Shown here one piece after another: positions 10,317 through 36,871 of a stretch of 44,040 nt of DNA (position 1 is the first letter of the stretch; each line of letters opens with the position of its first letter). The position numbers and the translations under genes were made by a program. The stretch is taken from contig JABINZ010000011.1 of NCBI GenBank assembly GCA_018698135.1, forward strand, positions 1-44,040, read 5' to 3'. The stretch comes from Bacteroidota bacterium. GTDB taxonomy: Bacteria > Bacteroidota > Bacteroidia > CAILMK01 > JAAYUY01. Below the pieces are notes generated by a model. That model was not told where the DNA came from, did no database searches, and was given only the letters and a program-made list of their open reading frames with translations.

Positions 10317-10437
10317 ATGAAACGAACATGAGTAAAACTTTCCCAAACGCTTGTGTGCCGAAACACTTCAGTGTGCAAGCACACAGGATTGACAATCATG
10401 TGAGTTGCAAATGACCATTAAAAGACAATTGAAACAT
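10317..10437 (+). repeat. Leader repeat L, copy A
   Basis: The first of three copies of a leader element (others at 27591 and 27732). It starts ATGAAACGAACATGAGTAAA and ends AAAGACAATTGAAACAT, immediately before the ATG of the coiled-coil gene. Inside is a hairpin region with outer arms GCTTG/CAAGC around GTGTGCCGAAACACTTC. Copy B has the same core with different arms (CCTGT/ACAGG), so pairing is kept while sequence changes. A 4-codon mini-ORF (MKRT, stop TGA) overlaps the ATG of a 28-codon mini-ORF (10328-10414) by ATGA. See findings. Confidence 0.75.
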
Positions 10438-11718
10438 ATGAAACTCCTTCATATAATTGTAGCGATAATGCTGCTTGTTAATACTGGATTTGCTCAAACG
10501 ATAAATCTGGATCATTTCAACAAAAGGATTTTTACTTCTGATTTTAATTCAGCTAAAGATGCAAAACTCTGGCCATCAACTAACAATACAGAAGAATTAA
10601 TTATCCTGAATAATGAGAAATACAGCATTGAGCGAAAAGAGTTCACAAAAGATCGAATTATTTTTCCAAATTGGAATAATGCATTTCCTTCATTTGAACT
10701 AACAGCCTCTGTAAACCTGCAGTATCTAACACAAAAAGAACATTCTGCGGGTATTTGCTTTGCTTACTCAAAAAAACACGAAACAGGTTTCATTATTGAG
10801 ATTAATAAAAAGAAGAAATACAGAGTCAAGCAAATTAATGCAGATGGAACAATCAAGTTTATCACAGGAACAACTAGCATGAACAGCTGGAAAAAATCCA
10901 ATATGCTATACCCCAAACAAGAATCCAATCAAATTAACATTCTTGTTATTGGAAACACCATCGATATTTACCTGAATAATTTTTTTGTATATAGCTTCAC
11001 TAACGATTTCAATTATAATTTCCGTGATTTTGGTTTATATGTAGGAAAAGGTTCTAAAGCTATTTTTCATCATGTGTATTTATTGATTAATCATACCGAT
11101 TATGGCAAGTACGATCAAAATATGGAGGAAGTAGATTTTACTAAGACAATTAGTAAAGAAGTAAAGCCGATAATAAAAGAAGATAGCAAAACTGAAATTG
11201 AGAGTGAACAGAAAATTGAAAAAGAACAAGTAAAAGAAGTTATTTCTGAGGAAGTTATCGAAGAAACAGAAGAACAAATTATCGCTGAAGTAGAAGTCGA
11301 GGAAACGGAAGGAAAAGCAGCTAACATGGATCCTGATGTCAAAAAGTGCCTCGACATGATAGTGAATCTTCGTAGTGATTTATCTGCAAGCCAGCGCGAA
11401 TTGGAAACAACATTAGCTTTATTGGGAAATTGCAAAGATGATAACAATCGGATGAATGAGTTTATTACCATGAATATGGATAATAGGCTAAAAAATAAAG
11501 CTGCCGGATTAGAATTAGAGAATGAACGCTTAAAAGATGAAATACAGAAGCTAAAGAGTAAAAATACAACACTTCAGGATTTCAAAGATTATTATAAAGA
11601 TGCAAATAAAGATGAGGACATTGTAAATTTCCTTTATGATGAACTTAAAAAAATTGAAGAAAAAAATGCTTTTCTTGCTCGCCAGGTAGAAATTTTACAG
11701 GAAAAACTGAACAAATAA
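10438..11718 (+). CDS. Secreted coiled-coil protein with lectin-like N-domain
   Basis: A 426-residue protein starting MKLLHIIVAIMLL, with a signal peptide cleaved after GFAQ. This ATG is preferred over an in-frame TTG at 10405, which would add 11 residues encoded by the leader repeat. Residues about 20-205 look like a concanavalin-type jelly roll (ELTASVNLQYL, AGICFAYSK, GNTIDIYLNN, FRDFGLYVGKG), as in sugar-binding or DUF1080-like domains. A long Glu/Lys/Val-rich linker (about 225-305) follows, then a strongly heptad-patterned coiled coil to the C-terminus (about 315-426). No sorting domain is seen, so it is probably periplasmic. The function is unknown. Confidence 0.78.
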   Translation: MKLLHIIVAIMLLVNTGFAQTINLDHFNKRIFTSDFNSAKDAKLWPSTNNTEELIILNNEKYSIERKEFTKDRIIFPNWNNAFPSFELTASVNLQYLTQKEHSAGICFAYSKKHETGFIIEINKKKKYRVKQINADGTIKFITGTTSMNSWKKSNMLYPKQESNQINILVIGNTIDIYLNNFFVYSFTNDFNYNFRDFGLYVGKGSKAIFHHVYLLINHTDYGKYDQNMEEVDFTKTISKEVKPIIKEDSKTEIESEQKIEKEQVKEVISEEVIEETEEQIIAEVEVEETEGKAANMDPDVKKCLDMIVNLRSDLSASQRELETTLALLGNCKDDNNRMNEFITMNMDNRLKNKAAGLELENERLKDEIQKLKSKNTTLQDFKDYYKDANKDEDIVNFLYDELKKIEEKNAFLARQVEILQEKLNK

Positions 11719-12620: not shown

Positions 12621-12723
12621 GTTTGAAGTTGAAAGTTTGAAGTTGAAAGTTACCTGCCAGCCGGCAGGCTGGAAAGTTGACAGATACAAGACTGTCTGAT
12701 AACGATCAAACTATAGTCTTTCT
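12621..12723 (+). repeat. Repeat module Q, copy 1, with GCAGG palindrome
   Basis: A tandem GTTTGAAGTTGAAA duplication (12621-12648) leads into a 76-bp module (12648-12723) that recurs at 16501-16576 in the same orientation and at the same length. It contains the palindrome CCTGCCAGCCGGCAGGCTGG (12653-12672) and ends in CAAACTATAGTCTTTCT. The palindrome looks like a short REP-type insertion inside the GTTTGAAGTT text. Confidence 0.85.
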
Positions 12724-12752
12724 AGGTCTTTCTCCATCGTTCCAAGATAATC

Positions 12753-12820
12753 AGCTTTGACAACTTTTAAAAAGTTGTCAAAGCTACCCCCAAAAAGCTG
12801 AAATGCTTGACAACAGACTA
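12753..12820. repeat. Repeat module P, copy 1 (16-bp-stem palindrome)
   Basis: A perfect palindrome, AGCTTTGACAACTTTT and its complement around one central base (12753-12785), followed by the tail AATGCTTGACAACAGACTA. A second copy lies at 16421-16479. Between copies, third-position C pairs with G here and A with T there, so the pairing is preserved. No T-run follows, so it is not a normal terminator. Confidence 0.85.
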
Positions 12821-12937: not shown

Positions 12938-13324
12938 ATGAGCAGAAACTACAAATTTCATGATCAAGAACAAATATACTTTATATCATTTGCTACTGTA
13001 TATTGGGTGGATGTATTTATCAGACCAATCTATAAAAACATATTAGTTGAAAGTATTCAATACTGTATAGAAGCAAAGGGATTGCTTGTTTATGTCTGGG
13101 TAATAATGACAAGCCATGTGCATATGATCATTGGAACCAGACAAGTAAAAATGCAGGATATAGTAAGAGACTTAAAGAAGTTCAGTTCAAAAAAAATTAT
13201 TGAAGCTATTCAAAATAATCCAGTGGTTGAAGGTTTTGTAAATGAAACTTATGAATATAAATATAGTAGTGCAATAGATTATTCAGGAGGGAAAGGCTTG
13301 ATAAATGTTGAAATTATTGACTGA
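12938..13324 (+). pseudogene. REP-associated tyrosine transposase with internal deletion
   Basis: A 128-residue member of the IS200-like/RAYT (Y1 transposase) family. The N-terminus MSRNYKFHDQEQIYFISFA and the metal-binding HUH motif His60-Val-His62 (IMTSHVHMIIG) are intact. After KKIIEAIQNN (about residue 94) the sequence jumps straight to PVVEGFV ... YKYSSAIDYSGGKGLI, the normal C-terminus. Complete family members are about 180-190 residues, and the missing stretch includes the catalytic tyrosine of the Y-[IL]-H-N-N-P motif. The frame is preserved, so a protein may still be made, but it should be unable to cleave DNA. Repeated AAT codons at the junction suggest a microhomology deletion. REP palindromes flank it. 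Confidence 0.85.
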
Positions 13325-16397: not shown

Positions 16398-16420
16398 TTT
16401 TAGTAGGTTGTTTGCTTATC

Positions 16421-16479
16421 AGATTTGACAACTTTCCAAAAGTTGTCAAATCTAACATGCAATGCTTGGCATCAGACTA
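16421..16479. repeat. Repeat module P, copy 2
   Basis: The palindrome AGATTTGACAACTTT/AAAGTTGTCAAATCT with a 3-nt centre, followed by AATGCTTGGCATCAGACTA. It matches module P copy 1 with compensatory stem changes. It begins 24 bp after the stop of the 910-aa gene. Confidence 0.85.
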
Positions 16480-16500
16480 CAGACAAAGTGGGAAGTTTGA

Positions 16501-16576
16501 AGTTACCTGCCAGCCGGCAGGCTGGAAAGTTAACAGATGAAGGATTGTCTGATTATGATCAAACTATAGTCTTTCT
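16501..16576 (+). repeat. Repeat module Q, copy 2, with GCAGG palindrome
   Basis: A 76-bp module matching 12648-12723 in the same orientation, including the palindrome CCTGCCAGCCGGCAGGCTGG at 16506-16525 without change. In this copy module P precedes Q, the reverse of the order at 12.6 kb. Confidence 0.85.
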
Positions 16577-16592
16577 CCATCTTCCCAAGTCT

Positions 16593-19266: not shown

Positions 19267-19318
19267 AATAGATTTATGGATTTGTTAATTCTAAATTGAA
19301 TAATACTTTTTCTAATTA

Positions 19319-19466
19319 GAATATCCGCTGTTATACCTATGATGTAAAAATTGCCACAGATTTACAGATTTATTTTGAGAAGGTTAGTGAAATTTCTGCA
19401 AATCAGTGGCCTAAATATGAATGGTATTACAGTAAATATATTTGCGGTATAATAAAGGATATACGT
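19319..19466 (+). repeat. MITE-like palindromic repeat R, copy 1
   Basis: About 148 bp. Terminal inverted repeats read ATATCC-N4-TTATACC on the left and, on the opposite strand at the right, ATATCC-N4-TTATACC. An inner inverted repeat GCCACAGATTTACAGA pairs with TCTGCAAATCAGTGGC (14 of 16 positions). It has no coding capacity. It recurs in tandem at 19479 and, inverted, at 36724. Confidence 0.82.
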
Positions 19467-19478
19467 TAATTATTTTTT

Positions 19479-19624
19479 GAATATCCAGTATTGTACCTAT
19501 GAAGAAAAAATTGCTACAGATTAACAGATTTATTTTGAGGAGGTTCGTGAAATTTCTGTGAATCCGTGGCCTAAACATGAATGCTATTACAATAAATACA
19601 TCTGTGGTATAATAAAACGTATTT
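19479..19624 (+). repeat. MITE-like palindromic repeat R, copy 2
   Basis: A second copy 12 bp after copy 1 in the same orientation. The left end GAATATCC and inner stem (GCTACAGATTAACAGA with TCTGTGAATCCGTGGC) are kept, but the right terminal GGATAT is lost. It lies between copy 1 and the Pho box of the PiT gene. Confidence 0.82.
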
Positions 19625-27590: not shown

Positions 27591-27731
27591 ATGAAACGAG
27601 CATGAGTATATGTCTACACACACACCTGTGTGCCGAAACACTTCGGTTTACAGGCACAAGGAAATGACTATATGCGAGTTCCCCGCCTGCATCGGGCAGG
27701 CATATGACAACTAAAAAACAATTATAAACAG
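27591..27731 (+). repeat. Leader repeat L, copy B
   Basis: Starts ATGAAACGAGCATGAGTATA and ends ACTAAAAAACAATTATAAACAG, where copy C begins. The core GTGTGCCGAAACACTTCGG is shared with copy A. The outer arms are CCTGT/ACAGG and the inner arms CCGAA/TTCGG. The second hairpin (ATATGC ... GCATAT) carries an inserted palindrome GCCTGC...GCAGGC (27685-27701) of the REP kind also seen in module Q. Confidence 0.78.
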
Positions 27732-27820
27732 ATGAAACGAGCATGAGTAAAAAATTTCTCACACATAGGAATGATTATAATGCGAGTTCCGCATGACCTT
27801 TAAAATTTAACTATAGACAT
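27732..27820 (+). repeat. Leader repeat L, copy C
   Basis: A short version lacking the first hairpin. It starts ATGAAACGAGCATGAGTAAA, keeps GGAATGATTATAATGCGAG with the hairpin ATGCG-AGTTC-CGCAT, and ends TAGACAT at the ATG of the NHL/PKD gene. The mini-ORF MKRA (TGA) overlaps the ATG of a 17-residue mini-ORF (27743-27796, MSKKFLTHRNDYNASSA). Confidence 0.78.
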
Positions 27821-30800
27821 ATGAAAAATATTTCAATTAGCATATTGTTTGTTCTTGCTTTGTCTTTTTCAGGACAAGCTCAAAATGTAAGTTTATTTGC
27901 TGGTTCACCTAATGTTCCTGGTTATAATAGTTCAGGCACAGCAATTTCTTCAGCCAAATTTAATCAGCCATATGGAATTGCGTTGGACGGACAGGGAAAC
28001 TTTTGGATTTCAGAAACTGGTGGACAGGTAATTTATATGATTACTTCCAGCAATATGGTATATGTCAGAGCAGGGTCATATACCAATACGGGTTATGTAA
28101 ATTCCAGTGGCGTTAATGCTCGCTTTTACAACCCAAAAGGAATGGCCGTAGGACCAAACAATGAAATTTATATTGCTGATTATAGCAATAATGTAATTAG
28201 AAAATTAACTGCATTTACATCACTTGGCAGTGCGCAAACTGTTAGCAAGTTTAGTGGCAAACAAGGTACAAGTGGTGGTTATGTTAATGGTTCTGCTACT
28301 GTTGCAGAATTCAATGGTCCTACTGATATAGTGGTCGATGCTTCTGGGAATCTCTATGTTTCTGATTTCAACAATCACGTGATTAGAAAAATCACCTCAA
28401 GTGGAGCAGTGTCCTTGTTGGCGGGTCAACCAAATTCTTCAGGAAGTACCGATGGTCACGCTACTTCAACTGCAAAATTCAATGGACCAGCCGGATTATA
28501 TCTTAAGGACAGTGTACTTTATGTGACAGATAATTGGGGATCAAAAATTCGTAAAATATCTCTTAATTCATCTTGGGTCAAAACTATTAGCAGTGCTTAC
28601 TGGACGCCTTCTGATATACTTGAATATGATGGCAGTCTTTATTTTACAGACCAGCATCGGGTAGCAAGATACAGCAACAGTACGTTAACAACTTATGCAG
28701 GAAGTGCTACTTTGAATCAATCAGGTTACACCAATGGATTCGGAACCGCTGCTCGTTTTTACAATGCAAAAGGCATGATTTACAATCCAGCCGACACCAG
28801 TATGCTTATTATTGACAGTGATAATCACGTTATTCGAAAAGTAACCTTATGCCCAACCATTACACCTAATATTACTATTAGCGGCAACACTTCATTCTGT
28901 GATGGCGATAGTGTTATTTTAACGGGTCCATCTGGTTATGCAAGCTATACATGGTCGAATAGTAAAACTACACAAAGCATAGTGGTTAAAAATTCTGCAA
29001 CATTAACACTTACGGTTACGAATTCAAATCAATGTACAGGAATATCAAGTCCGGTTACTTTGACTAAAAAATCCTTGCCCAATGCAAACTTTAATATGGA
29101 TAGTACGGCTTGTATTGGCATTGACGAAGCAATAACTTATACTGGCAGTGCAGGATCAGGTGCAACCTATACTTGGGATTTTGACGGAGGAAGCATATCT
29201 TCAGGAAGTGGACAAGGGCCATACAACGTGGGATGGAATAGTACCGGCAGCAAACAGATTACTTTACAAGTAAGTGAAAATGGCTGTTCATCAACTGTTA
29301 ATACAAAATACATAAATGTGTATGCTATTCCCACTTCTACCTTTACAATTAAAAACGCCTTATGTGCTTTTGAACATGATACCATCACATTTACAGGTCA
29401 GGCTTCTACATCCGCAACATTCAGCTGGGATTTTAATGGTGCTACTGTAGTTTCAGGATCTGGCAGAGGCCCGTACATTCTATACTGGGTTAATTCAGCT
29501 ACAAAAACTGTAAAATTAACTGTTGTTGATCATTTTTGTAATTCTACACAAACCAGCAATCAACTTAACATACAAGCAGTTCCTAACGCAGCATTTACCT
29601 CAAAAACAACCATGTGTTTTGGCGATATTGACACTATTTCCTTCACGGGATCAGCTGGCTCATCAGCTGTTTATAATTGGGATTTCGATGGAGGAAATAT
29701 CTTATCAGGCTCAGGAGCAGGACCTTATACGGTAGACTGGAATACTGTTGGTTCCAAAACTATATCACTGATTATTACCGAAAATGGATGCAATTCGGCA
29801 CCTTCAAATGTTAGTCTGCAGGTAAACCAATTGCCTACATCAACTTTTGATATAAAAAATACCGCCTGCACATTTACCAATGATACGATTACTTATACCG
29901 GGAATGCAACTTCAGGAGCTTCTTACCTATGGAATTTTGATGGTGCTACTGTTTTATCAGGTTCAGGTCAGGGACCATACATCCTTCACTGGCAACTTGC
30001 AGGGACCAAAATGGTCACACTTAAAGTTTCAGCAAATGGCTGCGAGTCAAACATCAAAATAGAACAAGTGCTTGTAACAGAGTCTCCTACTGCGGCCTTT
30101 GCCATGCCAACCTCCATTTGTGAGGAACAGCAAACCACTGTTACTTTTATAGGAATTGCCGGAACTACTGCAGTTTATAATTGGGATTTTGATGGAGCAA
30201 CTATCGTTTCAGGCTCGGGTTCAGGCCCATACATTGTAAAATGGACTGGATTTGGAACCAAAGCTCCTAGTCTTTACATTGAAGAAAATGGATGTGTATC
30301 TAATGTTTATTCCCTCAGTATAACAGTCAATCAAAAGCCAACGGCTGTCTTTACAGTCAATAGTGAAGTTTGTTTGGATAGGAATATTTCCGTTGATTAT
30401 GTTGGAAATGCTAGTAGTTCAGCTAATTATGTTTGGAACTTTGGAGATGCAGTGCAGCAGTCTGGCAGTGGTCAAGGACCTTATATTATCAGCTGGAATT
30501 CTGCAGGTGCTAAACAAATATCTTTACAAGTTAGTGAGGGCGGATGCAGTTCTGGGAATTTCACAAAAGACATAACGGTCAACCCAAATCCACCAGTTCC
30601 AACTATTACTCAAAACGGAAATACCTTAACATCAAGTTCAGCAACAAACAATCAATGGTTCGATTTGTCAGGAATTATCAATGGAGCAAATACACAAGAT
30701 TACAATCCACCGGCAGATGGCACCTATTATGTTGTTGTAACTGATAGTAAAGGTTGTTCTGCACAATCTGCAGATTTCGATTTTATTCATATTGGTTTAT

Positions 30801-31051
30801 CAGAATATGAATTAACAGATTTCCTCATTTATCCAAATCCGGTGCATGACGTATTAATTATCGAAAGCGGGAAACATGCATTATCTGATGTTGTTATATC
30901 AATTATTGCAAGTGATGGGAAAATTGTTTTAAGCAGGAAACTGGAAAATAAAATTCACGAAATTGATTTATCGCATATAGAAAAAGGTCTGTATATCCTT
31001 AGATTATCATCAAATGAAGAAATCAGGAATTTGAAATTACTTAAAAATTAA
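27821..31051 (+). CDS. Giant secreted NHL/PKD protein with T9SS type A domain
   Basis: A 1076-residue secreted protein with a signal peptide ending SGQAQ. Residues about 25-345 hold five NHL-type propeller repeats (for example ARFYNPKGMAVGPNNEIYIA, NNHVIRKIT). An Ig-like module comes next (about 350-420). Six tandem PKD-like domains of about 84 residues follow (about 425-920), each with W-[DN]-F and SGSGxGPYxxxW. The C-terminal T9SS type A domain (about 1005-1076) reads FLIYPNPVHDVLIIES ... GLYILRLSS. It is expected on the cell surface or in the medium. The start follows two leader repeats, the second ending at the ATG. ElbB follows after 10 bp. Confidence 0.93.
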   Translation: MKNISISILFVLALSFSGQAQNVSLFAGSPNVPGYNSSGTAISSAKFNQPYGIALDGQGNFWISETGGQVIYMITSSNMVYVRAGSYTNTGYVNSSGVNARFYNPKGMAVGPNNEIYIADYSNNVIRKLTAFTSLGSAQTVSKFSGKQGTSGGYVNGSATVAEFNGPTDIVVDASGNLYVSDFNNHVIRKITSSGAVSLLAGQPNSSGSTDGHATSTAKFNGPAGLYLKDSVLYVTDNWGSKIRKISLNSSWVKTISSAYWTPSDILEYDGSLYFTDQHRVARYSNSTLTTYAGSATLNQSGYTNGFGTAARFYNAKGMIYNPADTSMLIIDSDNHVIRKVTLCPTITPNITISGNTSFCDGDSVILTGPSGYASYTWSNSKTTQSIVVKNSATLTLTVTNSNQCTGISSPVTLTKKSLPNANFNMDSTACIGIDEAITYTGSAGSGATYTWDFDGGSISSGSGQGPYNVGWNSTGSKQITLQVSENGCSSTVNTKYINVYAIPTSTFTIKNALCAFEHDTITFTGQASTSATFSWDFNGATVVSGSGRGPYILYWVNSATKTVKLTVVDHFCNSTQTSNQLNIQAVPNAAFTSKTTMCFGDIDTISFTGSAGSSAVYNWDFDGGNILSGSGAGPYTVDWNTVGSKTISLIITENGCNSAPSNVSLQVNQLPTSTFDIKNTACTFTNDTITYTGNATSGASYLWNFDGATVLSGSGQGPYILHWQLAGTKMVTLKVSANGCESNIKIEQVLVTESPTAAFAMPTSICEEQQTTVTFIGIAGTTAVYNWDFDGATIVSGSGSGPYIVKWTGFGTKAPSLYIEENGCVSNVYSLSITVNQKPTAVFTVNSEVCLDRNISVDYVGNASSSANYVWNFGDAVQQSGSGQGPYIISWNSAGAKQISLQVSEGGCSSGNFTKDITVNPNPPVPTITQNGNTLTSSSATNNQWFDLSGIINGANTQDYNPPADGTYYVVVTDSKGCSAQSADFDFIHIGLSEYELTDFLIYPNPVHDVLIIESGKHALSDVVISIIASDGKIVLSRKLENKIHEIDLSHIEKGLYILRLSSNEEIRNLKLLKN
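29095..30590 (+). repeat. Six tandem PKD-domain coding repeats
   Basis: Units of about 250 bp. The conserved TGGGATTTT/TGGAATTTT core recurs near 29174, 29424, 29678, 29929, 30181 and 30432. The phrase encoding SGSGxGPY is nearly identical in all six. The even spacing points to recent duplication inside the gene. Confidence 0.88.
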
Positions 31052-36723: not shown

Positions 36724-36871
36724 TAACGTATATCCTTTATTATACCGCACATACTTATTGTACCTACCATCATATTTAGGCCACAGATTCACAGAAATTT
36801 CACTGACCTCCTGAAAACAACTCTGTTAATCTGTGGCAATTTTCACATCATTGAACAATAGTAGATATTCA
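36724..36871 (-). repeat. MITE-like palindromic repeat R, copy 3 (inverted)
   Basis: On the minus strand this matches copies 1 and 2 of the porin/PiT region almost end to end. It has the same GAATATC left end, inner stem GCCACAGATTAACAGA with TCTGTGAATCTGTGGC (15 of 16), and right end GGTATAATAAAGGATATACG. It fills the gap between the convergent lipocalin-like and DUF1207 genes. Confidence 0.85.

What the first reader, a model, noticed from the sequence alone, without database searches (positions are those of the whole stretch)
27591..27820. Tandem leader copies B and C before the giant NHL/PKD gene
Two copies lie head to tail, so copy B ends at the ATG of the mini-ORF that opens copy C. Copy C has lost the first hairpin but keeps the second (ATGCG-AGTTC-CGCAT). 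Copy B has a GCAGGC palindrome inserted in the loop of that second hairpin without breaking the flanking stem. Hairpin-loop insertion and hairpin loss are both expected if the stem is functional or a target for REP-type insertion.
Basis: seen in the sequence. Interest (0 to 1): 0.62.

Follow-up and report, generated by a model that had tools for sequence, protein, structure and literature searches.

The report
Mobile DNA element targeting start codons
The two tandem copies in front of this gene belong to a previously unlisted family of about 90-base mobile DNA elements, found across one class of bacteria and some of their phages, that insert at the sequence ATGAA, so that a copy landing on a gene's start codon rebuilds that codon and becomes the gene's new leader.

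Summary
The tandem copies are real, but they are not a local leader duplication. They are two of about 40 dispersed copies of a roughly 90-nt mobile element (50-150 nt) in this genome. The element occurs in 46 of 247 sampled genomes of the class, with about 87 and 158 left-end matches in two of them, and in at least six viral contigs.

Every intact copy begins and ends with ATGA(A). Three split genes in relatives show precise insertion at a single ATGAA; joining the flanks restores the reading frame. A same-genus genome lacks the element at an orthologous gene. In this genome 22 of 28 end copies stop exactly at the start codon of an ORF, against about 36% of non-coding ATGAA sites (p=4e-5). 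Shared ATGAs explain the tandem copies.

One contiguous internal 10-mer (RTTCCATNTG) is complementary to the element's own right-left end junction in six matched variants, always with the same single mismatch (0 of 41 match there).

No copy carries a transposase. An IS200/IS605-type single-strand mechanism in trans is my favoured but unproven guess. Rfam, HEARO and IS110 searches give no parent. Leader function is possible but untested.

The parts
27591..27735 (+). copy B of the mobile element (145 nt with both terminal ATGA)
   Evidence: whole-genome model hit of 90.6 bits
27732..27824 (+). copy C of the mobile element (93 nt with both terminal ATGA), shares ATGA 27732-27735 with copy B
   Evidence: 108.3 bits; 84.6 bits
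10317..10441 (+). copy A, same element, its right ATGA is the ATG of a 426-aa ORF with a sub-threshold 3-keto-disaccharide hydrolase match
   Evidence: 58.0 bits
27591..27603 (+). copy B, left arm of helix P1 (ATGAAACGAGCAT), includes the left ATGAA
27672..27681 (+). copy B, right arm of helix P1 (ATGCGAGTTC)
27625..27654 (+). copy B, optional hairpin extending the inner stem P2
   Evidence: present in 13 of 34 own copies
27682..27700 (+). copy B, nested palindrome CCCGCCTGCATCGGGCAGG at the fixed site GAGTTC|CAT
   Evidence: other palindromes at the same site in other copies
27701..27706 (+). copy B, CATATG, left arm of helix P3 (guide half for the right end); one mismatch with its right end CAGATG
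27732..27744 (+). copy C, left arm of helix P1
27780..27789 (+). copy C, right arm of helix P1 (ATGCGAGTTC)
27818..27824 (+). copy C, right end CATATGA: right arm of P3 plus start codon of the downstream gene
27821..31051 (+). downstream gene, 1076 aa, NHL repeats, PKD domains, Por secretion (T9SS) C-terminal tail; its start ATGAAA is the element's terminal ATGAA

Best explanation
Copies B and C are two tandem insertions of a short, non-coding, structured mobile element. Shown: the element occurs in tens to more than a hundred copies per genome, inserts precisely at the host sequence ATGAA, and leaves ATGAA at both ends. When the ATGAA is a start codon, the start codon and reading frame are rebuilt and the element's AT-rich 3' end becomes the sequence in front of it. 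The right-hand ATGAA of one copy is itself a site where a second copy lies, which gives head-to-tail arrays. Shown by covariation: helices P1 and P3, and one internal 10-nt segment complementary to the joined right and left ends except at one fixed position. Inferred: this segment acts as a guide that holds both ends and the target ATG together in single-stranded DNA, and a transposase encoded elsewhere (favoured: an IS200/IS605-type Y1 HUH enzyme) cuts next to the mismatched A. Also inferred: start-codon copies are common because they are the least harmful, since they keep the gene intact.
For: Dispersed copies with unrelated flanks. About 158 and 87 left-end matches in two relatives, with arrays of 2-3 units at about 90-98 bp spacing. 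46 of 247 class genomes positive, 25 of 135 genera. Intragenic insertions: a Y1/RAYT gene split at ATGAA, a SpoIIE gene split twice whose joined flanks score 48.9 bits over nearly the full profile against none and 20.5 for the end pieces, and an in-frame insertion in a third gene. Absence in a same-genus genome at the syntenic agmatinase gene. 22 of 28 end copies at the start of an ORF against 54:96 non-coding ATGAA sites, p=4e-5; about 75% of all ATGAA sites lie inside genes. P3 match in 71 of 82 copies, shuffled mean 34, maximum 48. P1 pair 7/96 CG 24, UA 17, none broken. Guide against own end junction at least 9/10 in 29 of 41 copies, shuffled maximum 14, with the mismatched position 0 of 41. 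P1, P2 and P3 appear in unconstrained folds of divergent copies.
Against: No copy carries or adjoins its own transposase, and no autonomous version was found in the loci inspected. Y1 genes occur in 12 of 13 element-bearing genomes but also in 36 of 47 without it, and are missing at the cut-off in one positive genome. The target ATGAA and the guide core TTCCAT hardly vary, so their pairing cannot be tested by covariation. The wobble-pair bias for the coding strand is weak (9 to 5). Window copies B and C each have one mismatch in P3. Start-codon enrichment over non-coding sites is not significant in one of the three genomes tested.
Confidence: 0.66

Rival explanations
1. A cis-regulatory RNA leader family: the element is kept at start codons because its RNA controls translation, P3 sequestering the start codon and P1 holding the upstream ATG.
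For: It lies on the coding strand immediately before start codons of ORFs, including likely core genes. P3 pairs with the start codon. Six viral contigs carry it before short ORFs, two of which match a lysis amidase and a head decoration family. Enriched at starts over non-coding ATGAA sites.
Against: Intragenic insertions, tandem arrays, large copy-number differences, functionally unrelated downstream genes, and absence at an orthologous gene in the same genus. Short 50-64-nt versions lack P2. P3 is short with an AT-rich loop.
Confidence: 0.12
2. An RNA-guided transposition system: the internal 10-mer is a guide RNA (bridge-RNA-like or OMEGA-like) used by a recombinase or nuclease-transposase encoded elsewhere.
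For: The contiguous guide matches the right-left end junction, as a donor-binding guide would. IsrB nucleases recognise an NTGA motif next to the target (PMC9581776).
Against: IS110-type genes are absent in G000, G041, G178, G220 and G164, all element-bearing. No HEARO match in 14 genomes, though that search has no positive control. No Rfam match. Versions of 50 nt leave little room for a guide-RNA scaffold.
Confidence: 0.15
3. An element removed at the RNA level (intron-like) or skipped by ribosomes, so that intragenic copies are harmless.
For: The same internal segment can pair with both ends, as in a group I internal guide sequence. Host frames are intact apart from the insertion.
Against: About 75% of ATGAA sites lie inside genes but only about four intragenic copies were seen among about a hundred, so intragenic insertion is selected against. 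The element is too short for a known self-splicing core.
Confidence: 0.04
4. REP-type palindromes moved by the RAYT enzymes of this genome.
For: RAYT-like genes are abundant and REP-like palindromes are nested in the element.
Against: The sequences flanking the RAYT genes in this genome carry other repeats, none like this element. The element is longer than a REP and has long-range pairing.
Confidence: 0.07

Closest known systems
Non-autonomous IS200/IS605-type elements (MITEs, PATEs, free-standing IS605 stem-loops as in Borrelia, PMC2775950)
   Same: Short, transposase-free, structured; fixed short target retained at the left and an equivalent site at the right; guide pairing with the ends is expected for this mechanism
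   Different: No parent IS found; target ATGAA; one contiguous internal guide for both ends instead of separate left and right guides; most own-genome copies at start codons
REP elements and RAYT transposases (PMC3733652)
   Same: Dispersed structured repeats in genomes rich in Y1/RAYT genes
   Different: Not a simple palindrome; ends are ATGAA; none adjoins a RAYT in this genome; REPs are instead nested inside it
HEARO / IsrB (OMEGA) elements
   Same: ATGA-like motif at the target (NTGA for IsrB, PMC9581776)
   Different: No HEARO covariance-model match; no encoded protein; 50-150 nt
IS110-family bridge RNA
   Same: A guide complementary to the element's own end junction
   Different: No IS110 transposase in several element-rich genomes; target is not variable; no target-binding loop seen

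Membership tests
Non-autonomous mobile element (MITE-like, mechanism unspecified) | Multiple dispersed copies with sharp boundaries and unrelated flanks | tested here: met
Non-autonomous mobile element (MITE-like, mechanism unspecified) | Filled and empty sites | tested here: met
   Split genes restored by joining flanks; orthologous gene without the element
IS200/IS605-derived element | Short fixed target adjoining the element, no sequence loss | tested here: met
   ATGAA at both ends of intact copies and in restored sites
IS200/IS605-derived element | Ends shared with an autonomous IS carrying a Y1 transposase | tested here: not met
   Model R1 found none beside the 13 Y1 genes of the genome; no autonomous copy in the inspected loci
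IS200/IS605-derived element | Cleavage of single-stranded DNA by TnpA at the target and right end | not testable with these tools
   needs biochemistry
REP/RAYT | Short palindrome flanking a cognate RAYT gene | tested here: not met
HEARO / OMEGA | Match to the HEARO covariance model | tested here: not met
   0 of 14 genomes; the search had no positive control, so it is weak evidence
IS110 bridge-RNA element | IS110 transposase in the genome | tested here: not met
   absent in G000, G041, G178, G220, G164
Known structured RNA leader or riboswitch | Match to any Rfam family | tested here: not met
Cis-regulatory leader | Transcribed with, and altering expression of, the downstream gene | not testable with these tools
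   no transcription data

The most novel reading that the evidence does not exclude
A mobile-element family with its own transposition chemistry, in which a single contiguous 10-nt internal guide, complementary to the element's end-to-end junction except for an obligatory A.C mismatch, selects ATGAA and so places the element on start codons as an exchangeable 5' leader for bacterial and phage genes.
Probability: 0.3. Interest if true: 0.85.

Novelty: new variant of a known kind. Interest (0 to 1): 0.68.

Why it matters
An element that inserts at ATGAA and rebuilds a start codon can spread through gene starts without breaking coding sequence, exchanging the translation-initiation regions of unrelated genes, phage genes included. 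It would be a natural source of new 5' leaders. Its target choice and mobility can be tested directly, because the guide, the ends and the target are short and defined. The transposase is unknown, which makes it a concrete search problem.

Tried and rejected
Rfam with gathering and relaxed thresholds: no family. HEARO model: none, without a positive control. IS110 family: absent from several rich genomes. Y1 transposases: no element ends beside them in the own genome and no clear co-occurrence. Autonomous copies: left ends without right ends in G057 and G041 looked like decayed or truncated copies or chance matches. The C254 pair in the own genome was set aside as an empty-site test because the flanks are themselves a duplicated repeat. 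BLAST of phage and plasmid collections: no match. Pattern hits L256, L271-L273, L275 and L277 in viral contigs are chance or coding matches. The own-genome pattern hit L027 is a chance match inside an ORF. Coding-strand wobble bias: too weak to decide between RNA and single-stranded DNA. Literature searches found no description of start-codon-targeting elements of this kind, in the open-access library only.

Full report
What is in the window. Copies B (27591-27731) and C (27732-27820) are head to tail and share ATGA at 27732-27735. C ends at the ATGA that starts the 1076-aa NHL/PKD/T9SS-tail gene at 27821. A third copy, A, lies at 10317-10441 and also ends on an ATG that opens a 426-aa ORF.

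It is a dispersed family. The first 17 bases occur 39 times in the 4.23-Mb genome with up to two mismatches, and not once in the reversed control; at least one of these hits is a chance match inside an ORF (L027). A covariance model of 34 copies finds 41 matches in the genome. Copies have unrelated left flanks and unrelated right-hand genes, such as diacylglycerol kinase-like, RidA-like, long-chain acyl-CoA synthetase-like and agmatinase-like ORFs (these gene names are my reading of the sequences, not database matches). The optional hairpin is present in 13 of 34 aligned copies. Small palindromes of several different sequences sit at one fixed place, GAGTTC|CAT, in seven or eight copies.

Distribution. 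A second, broader model (R2) matches 46 of 247 genomes of the class, in 25 of 135 genera. A pattern for the right half hits all eight element-bearing genomes tested, neither of two negative genomes, and never in reversed controls. A left-end pattern with up to three mismatches counts about 158 matches in G041 and 87 in G057 (reversed controls 5 and 19), many in arrays. Named carriers are Bacteroidales UBA6680 and McBI.38, Prolixibacter bellariivorans and a Draconibacterium bin. Six viral contigs carry it, each time immediately before an ORF of 63-273 codons. Two of these ORFs match a lysis amidase and a head decoration family. It has no Rfam match.

Structure. In all lineages helix P1 joins the left end to an internal arm. 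The pair at alignment columns 7/96 is CG in 24 and UA in 17 of 41 sequences with no exception. In P3 the internal CATNTG pairs with the terminal CANATG, and the N pair is AU 17, CG 14, GC 8, other 2. Over 82 copies, 71 match fully against a shuffled mean of 34 and maximum of 48. Unconstrained folds of divergent copies give P1, an inner stem P2 and P3. Copies B and C themselves each have one mismatch in P3, and copy C alone folds no better than shuffled sequence. The two guide halves are contiguous. The 10-mer RTTCCATNTG is complementary to the element's own right-left junction CANATGAAAY in six matched variants. At least 9 of 10 positions match in 29 of 41 copies, against a shuffled mean of 5.7 and maximum of 14. 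The position opposite the fourth base of ATGA matches in none of 41. I infer that this is where the strand is cut. That step is not shown.

Mobility. Three kinds of evidence support it. First, insertions inside genes. In G041 a RAYT gene is interrupted at ...CTAATA-AATGAA-ATT...; joining the flanks leaves one ATGAA and restores the open frame with a Y1 transposase match. Also in G041 a SpoIIE phosphatase gene carries two separate insertions; after joining, the protein scores 48.9 bits over nearly the whole profile, while the end pieces score nothing and 20.5 bits. In G057 a third gene carries a 30-codon in-frame insertion. Second, a same-genus genome has the same gene order at the agmatinase locus with a 30-base intergenic region and no element. 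Third, copy-number expansions and arrays sharing ATGA.

Why start codons. In this genome, 22 of 28 end copies stop exactly at the start of an ORF, against 54 starts to 96 other non-coding ATGAA sites in the background (p=4e-5). An automated count gives enrichment in G000 (odds ratio 3.2, p=0.006) and G057 (4.5, p=1.4e-4), and none that is significant in G041. About three quarters of all ATGAA sites lie inside genes, yet only about four intragenic copies were seen. The simplest account is that insertion needs only ATGAA and that selection keeps the copies at starts, where the codon is rebuilt. An added benefit or an added target preference is not excluded.

Mechanism and enzyme. No copy encodes a protein. 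Y1 transposase genes are common (13 in this genome), but none adjoins the element, and their presence does not separate carriers from non-carriers. IS110 genes are missing from five element-bearing genomes. HEARO was not detected, in a search without a positive control. The preferred model is transposition in trans by a single-strand Y1 enzyme with guide pairing, by analogy to IS608 (own knowledge). I give about 0.4 to that enzyme class, separately from the much firmer claim that the element is mobile.

Verdict. The interpretation shifts from a duplicated leader to a mobile element whose landing at a start codon makes it a leader. Whether it regulates anything is open.

Noticed in passing
window 19316-19456, 19476-19616 and inverted at 36751-36851: Another dispersed repeat of about 140 bp, in tandem and inverted copies; a related sequence flanks element copies on contig C254.
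   Followed up: partly
window 12938-13324, with repeats at 12632-12786 and 16418-16583: A short RAYT-like Y1 transposase gene lying between repeat pairs that include a CCTGCCAGCCGGCAGGCTGG palindrome similar to palindromes nested in the element.
   Followed up: partly
own-genome copies L007, L008, L016, L018, L023, L026, L031, L034 and several G041 copies: Different small palindromes (CCTGCCAGAAGTCAGGCTGG, CCCGATAAATCGGG and others) nested at the same junction GAGTTC|CAT of the element.
   Followed up: partly
L149 (G041:C29): A SpoIIE phosphatase gene carrying two separate element insertions but otherwise intact.
   Followed up: yes
L243 (G057:C7:334269): An element inside a gene that is read through in frame and adds 30 codons.
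   Followed up: partly
L168 and L169: The same element and flanks occur in two genomes of different families (G046 and G035), by transfer or contamination of an assembly.
   Followed up: no
L259, L267, L269, G056:C138: Minimal versions of 50-64 nt that keep only the ends and the internal guide.
   Followed up: partly
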